This document shows positions 4,091 to 52,432 of a DNA stretch of 58,994 bases, piece by piece. The notes under the pieces are model-generated. The model was not told the origin of the DNA. It searched no databases and saw only the letters and a program-made list of their open reading frames with translations. Within the stretch, counting starts at the first letter, position 1. Every line of letters begins with the position of its first letter. Both the position numbers and the translations under genes were made by a program. The stretch is from Hallerella porci (GTDB taxonomy: Bacteria > Fibrobacterota > Fibrobacteria > Fibrobacterales > Fibrobacteraceae), in the NCBI RefSeq assembly GCF_003148885.1, contig NZ_QGHD01000013.1, positions 1 to 58,994 of the forward strand, in the 5' to 3' direction.

Positions 4091-4828
4091 ATGATTTTAA
4101 AAACGGGTAATTATAAAATTGAAAAGAAAGAACCGGTTTCTGTAAAAGCTTATACAAAATTGAATGGATTAAAAGTTACCATCGGCCCTGTGAAAAAAGT
4201 AAAAGAACGCTCTTATTATCTTTTGACCGATGAAGGGCACGAATACATTTACATTGCACAAAGCACGCAAAAAAGTGATGCGGAAATGTTTGAATTTTTA
4301 TCGGAAATAGGAAAAGATGCTGGTCTTGTAGAATATGATGAATTTTACAATTCATTTTACACCATTGCGGATGATTCCGAAGATTTATTTTTAGGCTTTA
4401 CTTGTGAAAAACTTGACTGGCGTTATGCCGAAAGCAAAGGGAATCAACTTTGGGCAAGGAAAATGGTCGGCTATTGGAATGCGAACCTTTATTTTTACAG
4501 CAATTCTTACGGAGCATGGGGCTATGGACTTTTTGATTTGCTCACTAATCGCAATATGAAAAATATCTATGGAAATTTATATGGTGCGTATAAAGAAAAA
4601 GAAAATGCTCGTGTAATTTATGGCGTTAAAGGCCGCGCTGTTTATTCTCTTTGGGGGTTGAGCGAAATCAATTTGGGAATTGGCCGTTTTGTGGTTGCAT
4701 TAAACCCGATTTCAGGAAGATTTTCGGAAAGAAATTTAATTACGCGGGCTGAAAAATTGCAACTGTTAAATCGCGGTGGTTACGCAAAAAAAATTAAAAA
4801 GAATCCGGAAAAAAATGAGGGAAACTGA
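4091..4828 (+). CDS. 3' part of the SPOR-like lipoprotein gene
   Basis: This 245-residue frame has no signal peptide and no ribosome site before its first ATG at 4091. The same frame is open upstream of that ATG and overlaps the end of the previous gene, which supports a frameshift rather than two genes. I recognise no known catalytic domain. Visible features are an N-terminal strand-rich part (VKAYTKLNGLKVTIGPVKKVKERSYYLL, perhaps a second SPOR-like fold) and an aromatic-rich middle (YWNANLYFYSNSYGAWGYGLFDLL). Its stop codon overlaps the start of the next gene by one base (TGATG), so the two are translationally coupled. Confidence 0.5.
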   Translation: MILKTGNYKIEKKEPVSVKAYTKLNGLKVTIGPVKKVKERSYYLLTDEGHEYIYIAQSTQKSDAEMFEFLSEIGKDAGLVEYDEFYNSFYTIADDSEDLFLGFTCEKLDWRYAESKGNQLWARKMVGYWNANLYFYSNSYGAWGYGLFDLLTNRNMKNIYGNLYGAYKEKENARVIYGVKGRAVYSLWGLSEINLGIGRFVVALNPISGRFSERNLITRAEKLQLLNRGGYAKKIKKNPEKNEGN

Positions 4829-5427
4829 TGAAAAAACTGATCATTTTATTTGCGCTAATTTTGAGTGCAGTAAGTTTTGCAGCACCACCTTCAAATATAC
4901 AAGCGGTTGACTTGGGGCTACCCAGCGGCACCAAGTGGGCGAACATGAATGTGGGCGCGAAAAAGCCTGCAGATTATGGCGATTACTTTGCGTGGGGCGA
5001 GGTAAAGCCAAAAAAGACATACACAGAAGACAACTGCCAGACTTGTGGTCGTGAGCTTGACGATATTGCAGGTAATGCAAAATACGATGCTGCAACTGCC
5101 AACTGGGGCGGCAAGTGGAAAATGCCGACGATAGCTCAAATGAGGGAATTGAAAGATAAATGCACATGGGTGTTGATAAAGCTAAAAAATAGCAAGGGAG
5201 TGCTTGTTAAGGTAACTGGGCCGAATGAAAATTCAATTTTCCTCCCAGCGGCGGGGGACCGTGACGATTCTGATTTGTGGGGCGCAGGGAGTTTCGGCTT
5301 CTACTGGAGTTCTACTCCGTACGAGAACTTCAGCGACGGCGCTTACGACTTGGACTTCGGTTCGGATGGCCAGCACGTGAGCCGCCGCCGCTACAACGGG
5401 CTATCTGTTCGCCCCGTCTTAGAATAA
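4828..5427 (+). CDS. Secreted paralogous-domain (FISUMP/DUF1566-like) protein
   Basis: The 199-residue protein has a clear Sec signal peptide (MKKLIILFALILSAVSFAA). Its single domain begins AVDLGLPSGTKWANMNVGA, contains 'WGGKWKMPTIAQMRELKDKCTW', and ends 'YWSSTPYENFSDGAYDLDF...YNGLSVRPV'. This start-to-end pattern is that of the C-type-lectin-like/FGE-like paralogous domain multiplied in Fibrobacter and Bacteroidota; its ligand is not known. Start choice is supported by GAGGG 8 nt upstream and the 1-bp overlap with the preceding stop. The body (about 4910-5420) is visibly richer in G+C than its AT-rich neighbours, suggesting recent copying or transfer from a paralogue. Confidence 0.75.
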   Translation: MKKLIILFALILSAVSFAAPPSNIQAVDLGLPSGTKWANMNVGAKKPADYGDYFAWGEVKPKKTYTEDNCQTCGRELDDIAGNAKYDAATANWGGKWKMPTIAQMRELKDKCTWVLIKLKNSKGVLVKVTGPNENSIFLPAAGDRDDSDLWGAGSFGFYWSSTPYENFSDGAYDLDFGSDGQHVSRRRYNGLSVRPVLE

Positions 5428-6801: not shown

Positions 6802-7569
6802 ATGAAGTTAAAATTTTTCGTTGCATTTTACGCAATTTTATTTTGTGCTTTTACAAGCGCTTTTGCGGAAGAGGAAATTCGAATTGTAAAAATCAACGAT
6901 TCTAATTTTGAAGCAGAAATTATGAATTCAAAGCAACCGATTATTTTGGAATTTTCTTCGACAAGTTGCCCGCCTTGTTTGATTATGATTCCCACTTTAA
7001 TCAGCATTGCAAAAAATTATGAAGATATTAAAGTGGCGTCTGTTGGAATTGATGATCCGGGAATTGAAAAGGTAAAAAATACTTTTAATATTACAGCATT
7101 CCCCACATTTTTTTTCATTAAAGACGGCAAAATAATTGGAAGAAAAATTGGAGCAATAAAAGAAAATGAAATGTTGGCTGCTTTAGGTTACTCTCCAAAA
7201 GTAACTAAGGCGCAAAAAAAGCCTAAGAAATCAAAAAATCAAAAATCTAATTTGGTGTGCTCAATAGATGGACAATTTAATGGCCTTAAAAATCATGTTA
7301 CGATTTCGTTTGAATTTAAAAATGGCGAAATTAAAAATGTTGATTTGGTGACAGATGTGATTATCCCGCCTGCTTTAGAAGAACATCGCGAAGCCATTAA
7401 GCAAAGATTTATTGAAAGCGGTAAAAGCGAAGTCACGGAAACGATGACGGGCTTTAGATTGCACACTGCAAATGATAGCCCATTTATCAAAGCGATGGAT
7501 ATGAAACGTACTTCCACTTATGGAGAAATGAAAGCTGGCCTTGAATTGCAAGGCTTCAGTTGTAAATAA
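6802..7569 (+). CDS. Secreted thioredoxin-like protein with an extra C-terminal domain
   Basis: 255 residues. Signal peptide residues 1-22 (MKLKFFVAFYAILFC...AFA). A thioredoxin fold at about 25-135 shows the active-site pair Cys56-Pro-Pro-Cys59 (SSTSCPPC) and the cis-Pro loop AFPTFFFIKDGKIIGRKIGA. A Lys-rich linker (KAQKKPKKSKNQKS) leads to a domain of about 110 residues (LVCSIDGQFNGLKNHVTISF...) that I do not recognise. It has Cys at both ends (SNLVCS and the C-terminal GFSCK), possibly a disulfide. Likely a periplasmic or surface thiol oxidoreductase. CPPC is less common than CGPC or CPYC, and suggests a specialised redox role. Confidence 0.7.
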   Translation: MKLKFFVAFYAILFCAFTSAFAEEEIRIVKINDSNFEAEIMNSKQPIILEFSSTSCPPCLIMIPTLISIAKNYEDIKVASVGIDDPGIEKVKNTFNITAFPTFFFIKDGKIIGRKIGAIKENEMLAALGYSPKVTKAQKKPKKSKNQKSNLVCSIDGQFNGLKNHVTISFEFKNGEIKNVDLVTDVIIPPALEEHREAIKQRFIESGKSEVTETMTGFRLHTANDSPFIKAMDMKRTSTYGEMKAGLELQGFSCK

Positions 7570-7597
7570 ATTTTTCTTGTTTGGAAAAATTTGAAAT

Positions 7598-7948
7598 TTA
7601 ATTTTGGTCTGCAGAATTTAAAGTCGGTGCATCAGCCGTTGATTTGAATTCTGCAGCTTTTTCTTTTAATGCACTTGCCGTTGATTCGATGACTTCGCCA
7701 GTTTTCGTTTTGGCTGCGGTTAAAAGTTCATCGGCGACTTTGCCCGCAGCCACTTCGACGTCGTGTTTAGATTCTTCGCTGACTGCGTTGGAAATTTCGT
7801 CGGCGACTTTTCCGACGGCGATTTCCGCTTGATTTTTCGTTTCTTCGCTTACGGCATCGCATGCGTTGAATGTAAAAGCAGAGAGAATTCCGAGCGAAAT
7901 GAGAATCGCTTTTCTCCCTAAAAATTTATTGTTATGAATTTTCATCAT
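7598..7948 (-). CDS. Small repeat-containing lipoprotein
   Basis: 116 residues. A lipoprotein signal ends at FTFNAC (Cys about residue 30). The mature part is an internal repeat, AVSEETKNQAEIAVGKVADE then AVSEESKHDVEVAAGKVADE, followed by an Ala/Lys/Glu-rich amphipathic helix. This is the look of small coiled-coil envelope lipoproteins of the Lpp/YtxH type. No Shine-Dalgarno precedes the ATG. Instead a consensus promoter ends 6 nt before it, which points to a leaderless message. Unknown function; envelope structure or stress is a guess. Confidence 0.6.
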   Translation of the reverse strand: MMKIHNNKFLGRKAILISLGILSAFTFNACDAVSEETKNQAEIAVGKVADEISNAVSEESKHDVEVAAGKVADELLTAAKTKTGEVIESTASALKEKAAEFKSTADAPTLNSADQN

Positions 7949-46985: not shown

Positions 46986-48837
46986 GAAGACTTTGACTGA
47001 ATTGCCCAATCGCAATATAAAATCGCTTGCTTTTATGTTGCTTGTGGCGGGCGTATTTTTATGTCTTTCTATTCGATTATTTTATTTGCAATCGGTGCAA
47101 TACGAAGCGAATATTCAAAGCGCTGACGAAAACCGTTTGCGCCGCATCGTGCTTACGGCAGAACGCGGACTCATTTACGATCGCAACGGAACTCTTCTTG
47201 TGGGAAATCGTCCGTCTTATCAAATCGTCATCTTGCCGGGCGAAATTCGCAAAATGAAAGCGGAGAAAAAAGAAGCGCTTTTTAAGAAACTCATTCATGT
47301 GAAAGATTCGCAAGGCGAAGCGCTTTTTGATTCGGCAGTCGTCGATACGATGTTTCAGCGGAGCGGTTGGAAGTCGCACGGAACTCTTCGCATTTTGGAA
47401 GACGCTTCGGAAGAACAAGTTTCGATTATGCAGGAACGCTCGGGAGAATTTCCGGGGGTGACGACAGTCGTCGAATCGAGGCGGTCGTATCCTTATGGAA
47501 CATTGGCGGCGCATTTGCTCGGTTATACGGGAGAAATTTCGGACGAACAATTACTCCTTCCCGAATATGCGGGATATTCTTCGGGCGATCGCGTTGGGCA
47601 GAAAGGATTAGAAAAACAATACGACGGCGAATTCCGCGGCGAAGACGGCGTCAAATATGTGGAAGTCGATGCCTACGGACGTCAAGTTCGCAATATCGAA
47701 GGCATGCAAAATGTGCCATCGGTTCCGGGCTACGGGATGATTACGACGATTGATTTGGATATTCAAAAAGTCGCCGAAGAAGCGCTCCCCGATTCGGTGC
47801 GCGGGGCTGTCGTTGCAATCGATCCGCGGAATGGAGAAATTCTCGCGATGGTTTCGTCGCCAAGACTTGACCCGAATATTTTTTCGCTTAAACGCCGCGA
47901 ACGCAATAAAGGCTGGGCAAAAGTTGCGCTCGATTCAACGCGTCCGTTGATGAACCGCGCTGTCGCGGGAGTTTATCCGCCGGCATCGGTTTTTAAATTG
48001 GTGACATCGGGAGCGGGGCTTGAAAATCGTTTGGTCACGGGAACGACTTATATGCAGAAACCGTGTACGGGCGGTTACACATTCGGAGCGCGCTATCAAA
48101 AATGCTGGGGCACTCACGGCAATTTGAATTTGGTGAATGCTTTACGGCTTTCGTGCGATGTTTATTTTTATCAGTTGGGCTTAATGCTTGGAATGGAACG
48201 CATCAATGAATTCGGTTACCGTTTTGGGCTCGGGCATAAACTCGGAATTGATATTCCCGGAGAAAAGCAAGGATGGCTCCCCGATTCGATTTCGTTTAAT
48301 GAACGCAATAAGCGGAGCGGTTGGCGTTGGGCGCGCGGTTTGATTTTGAATTTAGCGATTGGGCAAGGACAGCTAGTGACGCCGCTTCAAGAAGCGGTTC
48401 TCGCAGGCTCGATTGCGACAGGGAAAGGCGTTTATCGTCCGCATTTGATGAAAGAGCTCCGCGATGTCAACGGCAATTTAGTCGGACGTTATATTCCAGA
48501 GAAAATTTTTGAAGGCAATATGAGCGAATCCACTCATCGCGCCCTTTTAGCGGGAATGGATTCGGTGGTCAATCACCCGGGTGGAACAGGAAAACGGGCT
48601 GCGATTCCGGGCATTCGCGTCGGCGGAAAATCGGGCTCGGGCGAATGGAAAAAAGGCGAAAAAACACATGCATGGTTTGTCGCAGTTGCTCCGTTAGAAA
48701 ATCCGGAAATTGCGGTTGCGGTGATTCAAGAAGCGCAAGGCGGCGGAGGCTCGAAATCGGCTCCGGTATGTCGCCGTGTGATGGAAGCATACTTTGAAAA
48801 AATGCACAAGAAAGATTCGACGGAGGTAAAAAAATGA
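46978..48837 (+). CDS. mrdA: Penicillin-binding protein 2
   Basis: 619 residues. Membrane anchor at about 17-35, PBP dimerisation domain, then the transpeptidase domain with Ser337 in PPASVFKLV (SxxK, Lys340), the S-x-N position as SCD in 'LRLSCDVYFYQLG', and K-S-G in GGKSGSGEWKKGEKTHAWF. It cross-links peptidoglycan during side-wall growth and works with RodA. SCD in place of S-x-N is the normal PBP2 variant. The stop overlaps the rodA start (ATGA). Confidence 0.95.
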   Translation: MSKKTLTELPNRNIKSLAFMLLVAGVFLCLSIRLFYLQSVQYEANIQSADENRLRRIVLTAERGLIYDRNGTLLVGNRPSYQIVILPGEIRKMKAEKKEALFKKLIHVKDSQGEALFDSAVVDTMFQRSGWKSHGTLRILEDASEEQVSIMQERSGEFPGVTTVVESRRSYPYGTLAAHLLGYTGEISDEQLLLPEYAGYSSGDRVGQKGLEKQYDGEFRGEDGVKYVEVDAYGRQVRNIEGMQNVPSVPGYGMITTIDLDIQKVAEEALPDSVRGAVVAIDPRNGEILAMVSSPRLDPNIFSLKRRERNKGWAKVALDSTRPLMNRAVAGVYPPASVFKLVTSGAGLENRLVTGTTYMQKPCTGGYTFGARYQKCWGTHGNLNLVNALRLSCDVYFYQLGLMLGMERINEFGYRFGLGHKLGIDIPGEKQGWLPDSISFNERNKRSGWRWARGLILNLAIGQGQLVTPLQEAVLAGSIATGKGVYRPHLMKELRDVNGNLVGRYIPEKIFEGNMSESTHRALLAGMDSVVNHPGGTGKRAAIPGIRVGGKSGSGEWKKGEKTHAWFVAVAPLENPEIAVAVIQEAQGGGGSKSAPVCRRVMEAYFEKMHKKDSTEVKK

Positions 48838-50105
48838 GAGGCTCCGGACGTTTTCTAAATAGCAAAATGAAAATCGATTGGCTGTTTTTGGTCCTCGTTT
48901 TCGTGCTCACTTGCATTGGGATTTCTCTCGTTTATTCGGCGACGGTAAATTCTGAACCGATTTGGCATACGTCGCGGTGGTTTCGTCAGATTATTTATTT
49001 CTTTGGCGGATGTGCGTTAGCGACTTTGTTTGCGGTTGTCCGCATTGATTATTGGCAGCGGCTTGCGTTTCCGCTTTATTTTTTAACGATTGCGGCGCTT
49101 GCGTTTGTTGCCCTCGGCGGCGGGGATGCGGCAAAGGGAGCGGGACGTTGGATCGATTTTGGATTTATTAAAATTCAGCCTTCGGAATTTGCGAAAATCA
49201 GTTTTTTAATCGCAATGTCCAAGTGGCTTTCGACTCATCGGGTGAATCTTTTACAACCGAAGACTTTTGTAATGCCTGCTGTGATTTTTATCGTTCCCTT
49301 TGCGCTCGTTTTAAAGCAACCGGATTTGAGTACGGCGCTTGTGTTTACCGCGGTGACGATTGTGGGATTTTATTGGGCGGGATTAACGGTTTTGGATTTG
49401 TGCCTGCTTTTAAGTCCGGGCGCATCCATTATTCTTTCGTATCCGCATATTCCATATTCGCAAGTGCTTTGGGGAGTTTTGCTCTGCGTTGTTTTCTTGG
49501 TTTTACTCTTCCGCAAGATGCCGAAGAAATTTGTGATTTTCATTTTGACTTTGAATATTGTCTGCGGTTACGCGAGTACGATGGCGTGGAATTCTTTGGA
49601 GCCGCATCAACGTGACCGCGTGATGACTTTCGTCGATCCGATGCGCGATCCGCGAGGCGCGGGCTATCAAGTGATTCAATCCGAAGTCGCAATCGGAAGC
49701 GGCGGACTTTTTGGAAAAGGCTTTGGAGAAGGTTCTCAGACAAATCTCGCATTCTTGCCCGAAGAACATACGGACTTTATTTTCAGCGTTCTCGGGGAGC
49801 AATTTGGCTTCGTCGGTTGCGTGGGAATTTTGATCTTGTATTTCGCCTTCTTATGGCGAGCGATGTCTATTTGCCGATTGCATCTCGATCCGTTTGTGAA
49901 TCATATCGTTTCGGGTGCGTGTACGATTTTCTTCTTCCATATTACGGTGAATATTTCGATGACGCTTGGACTTATGCCGGTGACAGGGCTTCCGTTACCC
50001 TTCCTCTCTTACGGCGGATCGTTTATGCTCACCTGTATGATGCTCGTCGGGCTGCTAGTGAATATGCGATATCAAGGCAGTCAGTTGGAAAGCAACTACA
50101 ATTAA
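48834..50105 (+). CDS. mrdB: RodA peptidoglycan glycosyltransferase (SEDS)
   Basis: 423 residues with about ten membrane helices. SEDS signatures: 'RWIDFGFIKIQPSEFAKISFLIAMSKWL', 'VLKQPDLSTALVFTAVTIV', 'ESEVAIGSGGLFGKGFGEGSQT' region (reads QSEVAIGSGGLFGKGFGEGSQ), 'LPEEHTDFIFSVLGEQFG' and the late 'GLPLPFLSYGGSFML'. It polymerises glycan strands with PBP2. The ATG at 48834 has GGAGG 7 nt upstream and overlaps the mrdA stop by 4 nt. Last gene of the rod operon; the 42-bp repeat array begins 85 bp later. Confidence 0.95.
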   Translation: MRGSGRFLNSKMKIDWLFLVLVFVLTCIGISLVYSATVNSEPIWHTSRWFRQIIYFFGGCALATLFAVVRIDYWQRLAFPLYFLTIAALAFVALGGGDAAKGAGRWIDFGFIKIQPSEFAKISFLIAMSKWLSTHRVNLLQPKTFVMPAVIFIVPFALVLKQPDLSTALVFTAVTIVGFYWAGLTVLDLCLLLSPGASIILSYPHIPYSQVLWGVLLCVVFLVLLFRKMPKKFVIFILTLNIVCGYASTMAWNSLEPHQRDRVMTFVDPMRDPRGAGYQVIQSEVAIGSGGLFGKGFGEGSQTNLAFLPEEHTDFIFSVLGEQFGFVGCVGILILYFAFLWRAMSICRLHLDPFVNHIVSGACTIFFFHITVNISMTLGLMPVTGLPLPFLSYGGSFMLTCMMLVGLLVNMRYQGSQLESNYN

Positions 50106-50190
50106 ATGAGGAATTAGGAATTATCTACAAGGCGAGCGTTGCAAAATTTGCCCGTTTGAAAATTTTTAGGCAAATCTAGAAGCTAGGAAC

Positions 50191-50812
50191 TCATCTCCAG
50201 AAATCCGGTGAACAAATTTCCCCCGGGAAATGTCATTTCCAGAAATCCGGTGAACAAATTTCCCCTAGGAAATCTCATCTCCAGAAATTCGGTGAACAAA
50301 TTTCCCCTGGGAAATGTCATTTCCAAAAATCCGGCGAACAAATTCCCCCCGGGAAGTGTCATTTCCAGAAATTCAGCGGACACATTTCCCCTGGGAAATG
50401 TCATCTCCAGAAATTCAGCGGACAAATTTCCCCTGGGAAATGTCATCTCCAGAAATTCGGCGGACATATTTCCTCCGGGAAATTTCATTTCCAGAAATTC
50501 AGCGGACACATTTCCCCCGGGAAATGTTATTTCCAAAAATCCGGTGAACATATTTCCCCCGGGAAGTGTCATCTCCAGAAATTCAGCGGACACATTTCCC
50601 CCGGGAAGTGTCATCTCCAGAAATTCAGCGGACAAATTTCCCCTGGGAAATGTTATTTCCAAAAATCCGGTGAACAAATTTCCCCTGGGAAATGTTATTT
50701 CCAAAAATCCGGTGAACATATTTCCCCTGGGAAATGTTATTTCCAAAAATCCGGTGAACATATTTCCCCTGGGAAATGTCATCTCCAGAAATTCAGCGAA
50801 CAAATTTCCCGC
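50191..50812. repeat. 42-bp tandem repeat array, about 15 copies
   Basis: About 14.8 copies of a 42-bp unit, which runs TCATTTCCAGAAATCCGGTG then AACAAATTTCCCCCGGGAAA and TG. Copies differ at a few fixed places (T/C, CCGGT/TTCAG, CCC/CTG, AAATG/AAGTG). Each unit holds ATTTCCC-CC-GGGAAAT, and across unit borders GGAAATG-T-CATTTCC, so one arm can pair forwards or backwards. Because 42 is a multiple of 3 and the unit has no stop in one frame per strand, both strands stay open for about 200 codons; neither has a ribosome site, so I do not call a gene. No spacers are present, so it is not CRISPR. Confidence 0.9.
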
Positions 50813-50843
50813 AGGGGGTTGAGAACTTAGAACTGAGAACTTT

Positions 50844-50892
50844 GATCTTAGAAATTCTAAGCTCTAAAATCTAAGTTCTAAGATCTTTCTTT
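50844..50892. terminator. Alternative hairpins after the repeat array
   Basis: GATCTTAGAA (50844-50853) pairs with TTCTAAGATC (50876-50885), followed by TTTCTTT. A competing stem uses CTTAGAA (50847-50853) and TTCTAAG (50855-50861). Short direct repeats of the type (T/G)AGAACT stand just before (50819-50840). It may end the rod-shape operon. Confidence 0.5.
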
Positions 50893-51027
50893 CCACTTTT
50901 TTCGCTTTTTCGTAAAATCTTCTTTACTTTTGGAAAATTTTTCCCGTTTCAAGCGTCTATAGATAAAGGAGGCATTTTGAAAAATTTTAAGCAGAAATGG
51001 TTTTGCTTAAAAATCATCGGAGAAAAA

Positions 51028-51738
51028 ATGAAACTTTGGAATGGCGTTTCGAAATTTTTATTTGGCGGCGAATGCTTGGGTTGTCAGCGGAGCGATTTGC
51101 CTCTCGATCCTTGGCTTTGCCCAAATTGTAAGCGGGAATTGAAGCGGCTTGCGAAGTCGCCGCGGCGACCGAATCCGGATGTGCTTTGCTTGTATGCGAT
51201 GACGCCGCTCACGAAATCGCTTGTGCACGGACTCAAATATGGCAGCATGCCGGGACTCGCTTCGTATTTGGTGAAAATTGCGTTACAAGAAGAGGAATCT
51301 TCCGAAGTTTTGCGCGAATGGGGACGGAAACTCGCTTTTGTTCCGGTGCCTTTACATTCGGCGCGCATGCGGGAACGCGGATATAATCAGGCCGAAAAAT
51401 TGGCGCAGACGATTGCGCGGTGCTCGGGCGGGGTCGTGGCGAATGCATTAAAACGCAAAACTTTCCGCATTTCGCAGACGCAGCTTTCGCGGGAAGGGCG
51501 AGCGAGCAATGTCGCCGGAGCCTTTGAATGGAAAAAGAATTTTACATGGCCAGAATATCATGTGCCGGTTATCGTCGATGATGTTTTCACCACGGGCGCT
51601 ACGACGACCGCTTGCTTGTATGCGTTTGAAAAAAGGAAAATGGGCGGAGCTGCAAAAGTTTGCACATTGCTTCGCGAAGAAAGTGCGACGGCAAGAATCG
51701 ATTTTGCCGCGGACAATGCGATGGAATGGAATGTATAA
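51028..51738 (+). CDS. comF: ComF-family phosphoribosyltransferase-like protein
   Basis: 236 residues from the ATG at 51028, with GGAG 5 nt upstream; a TTG at 50977 behind AAGGAGG is an in-frame alternative that would add 17 residues. The N-terminal zinc-finger-like CLGC...CPNC (Cys16, 19, 31, 34) and the C-terminal PRPP loop VIVDDVFTTGATTTACL are the ComF/GntX signature, with 'VPLHSARMRERGYNQAEKLAQ' between. ComF is needed for DNA uptake by competent cells in several bacteria; its reaction is unclear. No other competence gene is nearby. Confidence 0.87.
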   Translation: MKLWNGVSKFLFGGECLGCQRSDLPLDPWLCPNCKRELKRLAKSPRRPNPDVLCLYAMTPLTKSLVHGLKYGSMPGLASYLVKIALQEEESSEVLREWGRKLAFVPVPLHSARMRERGYNQAEKLAQTIARCSGGVVANALKRKTFRISQTQLSREGRASNVAGAFEWKKNFTWPEYHVPVIVDDVFTTGATTTACLYAFEKRKMGGAAKVCTLLREESATARIDFAADNAMEWNV

Positions 51739-52237: not shown

Positions 52238-52318
52238 CGGAAGAAGAGGGACTCGAACCCCCAAGCCTGACGGCGGCGGTTTTCAAGACCGCTGACTTAC
52301 CAATTAGCCTATTCTTCC
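52238..52318 (-). tRNA. tRNA-Ser (anticodon UGA)
   Basis: The minus strand folds into a cloverleaf: acceptor GGAAGAA/TTCTTCC with discriminator G, D stem GGCT/AGTC, anticodon stem GCGGT/ACCGC with loop CTTGAAA (anticodon TGA), T arm GGGGG-TTCGAGT-CCCTC. The variable arm is 13 nt with a 3-bp stem (GCC-GTCA-GGC), marking a class II tRNA; the whole gene is a compact 81 nt. No CCA is encoded. Confidence 0.93.
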
Positions 52319-52326
52319 GGGTAAAA

Positions 52327-52355
52327 CAAAAGCCCTAGAAGTTTCAGGGCTTTTG
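52327..52355 (-). terminator. Terminator of the tRNA-Phe gene
   Basis: CAAAAGCCCT/AGGGCTTTTG, a perfect 10-bp stem with a 9-nt loop, 4 nt past the tRNA-Phe 3' end on the minus strand, followed by TTTTAC. The stem is symmetric and could act in both directions. Confidence 0.8.
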
Positions 52356-52359
52356 TAAG

Positions 52360-52432
<73 letters not shown>

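What the first reader, a model, noticed from the sequence alone, without database searches (positions are those of the whole stretch)
50191..50812. 42-bp tandem repeat with alternating palindromes right after the rod-shape operon
About 15 units contain ATTTCCC-CC-GGGAAAT and, across borders, GGAAATG-T-CATTTCC, so the RNA or DNA could switch between two pairing schemes. Changes between copies are limited to a few positions and some look paired (CCCC/CCTG opposite GGGAA). It is not CRISPR (no spacers) and has no ribosome site despite open frames on both strands. A protein-binding array (nucleoid, partition), a variable-number locus or an RNA with stacked hairpins are options.
Basis: seen in the sequence. 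Interest (0 to 1): 0.62.

Follow-up and report, generated by a model that had tools for sequence, protein, structure and literature searches.

The report
Species-private 42-bp bacterial satellite array
A non-coding stretch after the rod-shape genes is one of many tandem-repeat arrays scattered between genes in this Fibrobacteraceae genome; the arrays have unrelated sequences but nearly all share a repeat length of about 42 bp, so the length, not the palindrome, is the feature that still needs explaining.

Summary
The array is real: 14.8 copies of a 42-bp unit at 50191-50810, 88% matches, between rodA and a comF-like gene. It is not unique. The same unit family (F1) forms about ten arrays in this genome, always between genes, in no consistent orientation. 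It was not found in five sister species or in any other Fibrobacteraceae genome searched. In the sister species rodA and comF are close together, so the array block is an insertion.

An 855-kb sample of this genome showed more. All 14 non-coding arrays with at least 3 copies (18 of 19 overall) have periods of 41-44 bp, in 8-9 sequence groups without detectable similarity. One sister species has its own 41-bp families. This matches the published "constant repeat size, variable sequence" bacterial satellites of Subirana and Messeguer.

The "two alternating pairing schemes" and "paired changes" are not supported: the border dyad is intact at 2 of 14 borders and compensatory changes are almost absent. 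The 16-bp core dyad is the conserved part of this family and recurs in 21-bp arrays of a Tannerella genome, but most other families here lack a significant dyad.

Function is untested. Best guess: a DNA-level array whose unit length (four helical turns) is held by a bound protein.

The parts
50106..50190 (+). left flank: interspersed-repeat module (TGAGGAATTAGGAATT... GCAAAATTTGCCCGTTTGAAAATTTTTAGGCAAATCT) inserted directly after the rodA stop
   Evidence: shared at 92-93% with flanks of the C15, C26 and C7 arrays; absent in sister species
50191..50810 (+). tandem array, 14.8 units of 42 bp, family F1; core dyad ATTTCC(C)NN(G)GGAAAT in each unit, last unit degenerate
   Evidence: TRF; unit table; core/spacer counts
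50811..50887 (+). right flank: AGAACTTAGAACT... ~68-bp imperfect hairpin repeat, about 40 copies in the genome
   Evidence: RNA fold z -3.4
48834..50105 (+). rodA (FTSW_RODA_SPOVE), upstream neighbour
   Evidence: Pfam PF01098, E 7.8e-91
50977..51738 (+). comF-like phosphoribosyltransferase gene, downstream neighbour
   Evidence: sub-cutoff Pfam match to PF00156; orthologue next to rodA in the sister species

Best explanation
The feature is a non-coding bacterial satellite array. It is one of about ten arrays of a species-private family (F1), and F1 is one of at least eight families in this genome that have unrelated sequences but the same unit length of 41-44 bp. Shown: dispersal between genes, absence from sister species, constant length with variable sequence, and a conserved 16-bp dyad core in F1. 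Inferred: arrays grow and shrink by slippage or unequal recombination (neighbouring units are only weakly more alike), and F1 arrays spread together with the interspersed repeats that flank them. Inferred, and least certain: the unit length of about four helical turns is kept because a DNA-binding protein, perhaps nucleoid-associated, docks once per unit on one face of the helix; in F1 the dyad would be its contact site.
For: F1 forms arrays at C13 (window), C1 (two), C8/C26, C15, C7, C6, C39, C3 and C4. In an 855-kb sample 18 of 19 non-coding arrays, and all 14 with at least 3 copies, have periods 41-44; coding-like arrays have mostly other periods, 15-207. Families F3 (5 loci) and F4 (7 loci) are also multi-locus and absent from the five sister species; sister G001 has its own 41-bp family at 6 loci. 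The rodA stop to the ComF motif PLDPWLC is 994 bp here against 168-259 bp in four sister species. F1 core positions are 93% conserved against 83% for the spacer, and the 41-bp variant keeps the core while its spacer has diverged. Orientation to genes is close to background: 11 co-directional, 4 divergent, 3 convergent against 145/66/42, which argues against a strand-specific RNA role. Constant-size, variable-sequence satellites of 20-21, 40-41 and 52 nt are described in PMC8161180.
Against: No binding protein was identified. Archaeal-type histones (PF00808) are absent from all six genomes of the genus. AA/TT steps are not phased to the helix (mean z 0.09). A dyad stronger than in shuffled units occurs only in F1, one F4 array and marginally F3, so one sequence-specific protein cannot explain all families. 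Periods of 41 and 44 are not exact multiples of 10.5. A mutational mechanism with a built-in ruler would give the same pattern without any function.
Confidence: 0.55

Rival explanations
1. Non-functional satellites: the ~42-bp length is set by the process that makes or expands the repeats (slippage, template switching or an unknown enzyme with a ruler), and the arrays are tolerated between genes.
For: No consistent gene orientation; species-private sequences; patchy presence, with none of ~42 bp found in 500 kb of sister G005; F1 arrays lie in mosaics of other repeats; higher-order repeats of 84 and 126 bp.
Against: The F1 core is conserved while the spacer diverges. No known mechanism gives a 42-bp ruler.
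Confidence: 0.35
2. Structured RNA: the array is transcribed with rodA or comF and each unit forms a hairpin that affects RNA stability or acts as an RNA sponge.
For: Core changes that keep G-U pairing on the + strand outnumber those that would do so on the - strand (23 against 8 cells), though most are one position. Satellite transcription was reported in Bacillus coagulans (PMC8625621).
Against: RNA fold z-scores only -1.9 and -2.3; arrays in both orientations and between divergent genes; most other families lack a significant dyad.
Confidence: 0.1
3. A mosaic palindromic element like REP/BIME, mobilised by a Y1 (RAYT-type) transposase.
For: Dispersed extragenic mosaic with a palindromic core and shared flanking modules.
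Against: The genome has a single Y1_Tnp match (154-aa frame), while sister species with 5 and 9 matches lack F1. Units are direct repeats, not alternating. F3 arrays have unique flanks.
Confidence: 0.08
4. Transcription terminator cluster after rodA.
For: Short G+C-rich dyads and a flanking hairpin module.
Against: No T tract follows the dyads; terminator-like sites equal the shuffled expectation, 2 against 1.8; arrays also occur between divergent genes.
Confidence: 0.04

Closest known systems
Bacterial non-coding satellites of constant repeat size (Subirana and Messeguer: PMC6749651, PMC8161180, PMC8625621)
   Same: Non-coding tandem arrays; constant unit length with several unrelated sequence families in one species; species-specific sequences; patchy occurrence among related species; short conserved signals inside the repeats of some species.
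   Different: Here the main class is 41-44 bp (they describe 20-21, with a few 40-41, and 52 nt); no 21-bp non-coding arrays were seen in the sampled part of this genome; in F1 the short signal is a 16-bp dyad.
REP/BIME elements
   Same: Extragenic, palindromic, mosaic, dispersed.
   Different: No alternating orientation; no clear Y1-transposase link; fixed 42-bp direct-repeat period.
21-bp TTTCCC-NN-GGGAAA arrays in Tannerella and Odoribacteraceae MAGs (loci L042-L044)
   Same: Tandem arrays with the same or a similar dyad; period exactly half of 42; several loci in the Tannerella genome.
   Different: Different phylum, different spacer; found by searching for this dyad, so shared ancestry is not shown.

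Membership tests
Constant-size bacterial satellites (Subirana and Messeguer) | non-coding tandem repeats with at least 4 copies | tested here: met
   14.8 copies, intergenic, no Pfam family above cutoff
Constant-size bacterial satellites (Subirana and Messeguer) | one unit length shared by several unrelated sequence families in a genome | tested here: met
   18 of 19 non-coding arrays at 41-44 bp in 8-9 groups
Constant-size bacterial satellites (Subirana and Messeguer) | families species-specific | tested here: met
   within the genus F1, F3, F4 only in this species; another family only in G001
Constant-size bacterial satellites (Subirana and Messeguer) | unit length of the published classes (20-23, about 40-41, or 52 nt) | tested here: inconclusive
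   41-44 bp: close to the minor 40-41 nt class of PMC8161180; a 22/44 class is from memory of their 2020 paper, not read here
REP/BIME | palindromic units in alternating orientation | tested here: not met
   units are direct repeats
REP/BIME | associated RAYT/Y1 transposase | tested here: inconclusive
   one Y1_Tnp match in the genome; more in species without F1
CRISPR array | identical repeats separated by unique spacers | tested here: not met
   the whole 42-bp unit is repeated
VNTR | copy number varies between strains | not testable with these tools
   one genome per species held
Intrinsic terminator cluster | hairpin followed by a T tract | tested here: not met

The most novel reading that the evidence does not exclude
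Species of one Fibrobacteraceae genus independently maintain many intergenic satellites whose only shared property is a unit of about four helical turns. That would point to an unknown chromosome-organising protein, or an unknown repeat-making enzyme, that measures length rather than reading sequence.
Probability: 0.25. Interest if true: 0.8.

Novelty: new member of a known kind. Interest (0 to 1): 0.5.

Why it matters
Constant-length, variable-sequence satellites in bacteria are published but unexplained. I found no report of them in Fibrobacterota in the searches made here. This genus offers a clean contrast: two species with ~42-bp arrays (this one and G001) and one complete genome with none in the 500 kb sampled (G005). 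That makes the question of what measures the unit length open to comparative genomics and to a DNA pull-down.

Tried and rejected
Coding repeat: open frames follow from 42 = 14 codons; 41-bp steps and the 41-bp variant break the frame. CRISPR: no spacers. RNA switch: border dyad mostly broken, compensatory changes almost absent, fold z about -2. Terminator: no T tracts. Known RNA: no Rfam family over the array. Phage or viral origin: pattern absent from viral contigs. RAYT transposition: Y1 counts do not track F1. Histone ruler: PF00808 absent. Helix-phased A-tract curvature: none. Orientation or promoter avoidance: close to background. Janibacter hit of the pattern scan (L041): two copies of a short palindrome 41 bp apart, no array. 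Literature searches for Fibrobacter satellites gave nothing specific.

Full report
OBSERVATION. The window holds one strong tandem array, 42 bp x 14.8 copies at 50191-50810. Units differ from the consensus TCATTTCCAGAAATTCGGCGAACAAATTTCCCCTGGGAAATG at 2-7 positions, and the last unit is degenerate. It lies between rodA (ends 50105) and a comF-like gene (50977-51738), downstream of mreB and PBP2. The core dyad ATTTCCC-NN-GGGAAAT is intact in 9 of 15 units; the border dyad GGAAATG-N-CATTTCC is intact at 2 of 14 borders.

NOT UNIQUE. Searching the whole genome (2.85 Mb, 78 contigs) with two units gave arrays at C13 (window), C1 (two), C8, C15, C7, C6, C26, C39, C3 and C4 (sequences). C8 and C26 arrays end at contig ends with overlapping sequence, so they are probably one array split by the assembly (inference). 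The C4 and C3 arrays have a 41-bp unit that keeps the core and changes the spacer. The family was not found in five sister species of the genus. The core-pair pattern was not found in any other of 111 Fibrobacteraceae genomes or in viral contigs.

EMPTY SITE. In the sister species rodA is followed closely by comF: the ComF motif PLDPWLC lies 168-259 bp from the rodA stop in the four where it could be measured, against 994 bp here; the fifth (L069) also shows a short gap. The extra DNA consists of a left repeat module, the array and a right hairpin repeat that has about 40 copies in the genome.

FLANKS. F1 arrays at C6, C7, C8 and C3 share a ~250-bp tail, 99% identical, that includes two degenerate 42-bp units. 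Some unrelated satellites share flanking repeats with F1, but the F3 arrays have unique flanks. So there is no single carrier element for all satellites.

LENGTH, NOT SEQUENCE, IS SHARED. I took 855 kb of this genome (C1, parts of C3, C4, C6, and the window). With arrays called non-coding when no frame through them extends 300 nt or more outside (a cut chosen after seeing the values), 18 of 19 have periods 41-44 bp, and all 14 with at least 3 copies do. Coding-like arrays have periods 15, 24, 39, 42, 45, 90, 99 and 207. One array counted as coding-like (C1:5494, 42 bp) is 88% identical in unit to the non-coding array C1:153447. Leaving out F1, 12 of 13 non-coding arrays have periods 41-44. BLASTN among consensus units at E 0.001 leaves 8-9 groups. 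F3 (43 bp) occurs at 5 loci and F4 (42 bp) at 7, within the genus only in this species. Sister G001 has a 41-bp family at 6 loci, only there, and other 41-bp arrays. G005 (500 kb), G004 (about 120 kb) and 20 other Fibrobacteraceae (up to 20 kb each) showed no non-coding ~42-bp array with 3 or more copies; the small samples make absence weak except for G005. The contigs sampled were chosen because they hold F1 or are large, and only about 30% of the genome was seen.

THE DYAD. In 73 F1 cores the arm positions are nearly invariant; core mean conservation is 0.93 against 0.83 for the spacer. Compensatory double changes are almost absent (2 of 73), so base pairing is not demonstrated. G-U-compatible changes favour the + strand (23 against 8), mostly through one position. 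RNA fold z-scores are -1.9 and -2.3 and DNA -1.5. Other families mostly lack a dyad better than shuffled units, so the dyad belongs to F1, not to the class. A scan of genome contigs for two cores 34-48 bp apart hit Tannerella and Odoribacteraceae MAGs whose arrays have a 21-bp period; the Tannerella genome has such repeats on four contigs. Because the scan looked for this dyad, this shows recurrence, not descent.

GENE CONTEXT. Eighteen arrays lie between co-directional (11), divergent (4) or convergent (3) genes, close to background for gaps of 60 bp or more, 145/66/42 (simple gene caller of my own, and three arrays overlap a doubtful gene call). The F1 orientation relative to genes is mixed.

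MECHANISM. The constant unit of 41-44 bp, four turns of B-DNA at 10.5 bp per turn, is the fact to explain. Published constant sizes, 20-21 and 52 nt, are about two and five turns (sizes from PMC8161180; the turn arithmetic is mine). A protein that repeats once per unit on one face of the DNA would give this; those authors also proposed nucleoid proteins. No protein was found, histones of PF00808 are absent, and A-tract phasing is absent. A mutational ruler is nearly as likely. I rate identity as a constant-size satellite at about 0.9 and the docking-protein mechanism at about 0.3-0.4; the stated confidence covers both.

VERDICT. A real, non-coding satellite array of a known but unexplained kind, apparently not reported from this phylum (only the open-access library was searched).

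Noticed in passing
G000 contigs C1, C4, C6 (e.g. C1:293846-294122, C4:82117-82351, C6:105670-106027): Many other intergenic arrays of 41-44 bp with unrelated unit sequences; F3 at 5 loci, F4 at 7 loci, within the genus private to this species.
   Followed up: yes
window 50811-50887: A ~68-bp imperfect palindrome (AGAACTTAGAACT...AGTTCTAAGATCT) present about 40 times in the genome; RNA fold z -3.4.
   Followed up: partly
L021 about 5050-5230, L025 about 4620-4860: Interspersed GTCATCCTGAACG...GAAGGATCTAGC repeat modules next to satellite arrays, tails 99% identical at four loci.
   Followed up: partly
L042, L043, L044: 21-bp tandem arrays with a TTTCCC-NN-GGGAAA-like dyad in Tannerella and Odoribacteraceae MAGs, on four contigs of the Tannerella genome.
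   Followed up: partly
L099:2937-3121 and 7508-7905 (sister genome G005): Repeats GCACTCCACGATATACAGTGGATTAAGAC with 71-72 bp spacing and differing intervals: looks like a CRISPR array.
   Followed up: no
L030:182-199: TGTTTCACGTGAAACA next to a gene that looks like rsmG/gidB: a canonical parS-type site, unrelated to the satellite dyad.
   Followed up: no
window 52238-52432: Two tRNA genes on the minus strand; sister species appear to carry two tRNA genes just after comF too.
   Followed up: no
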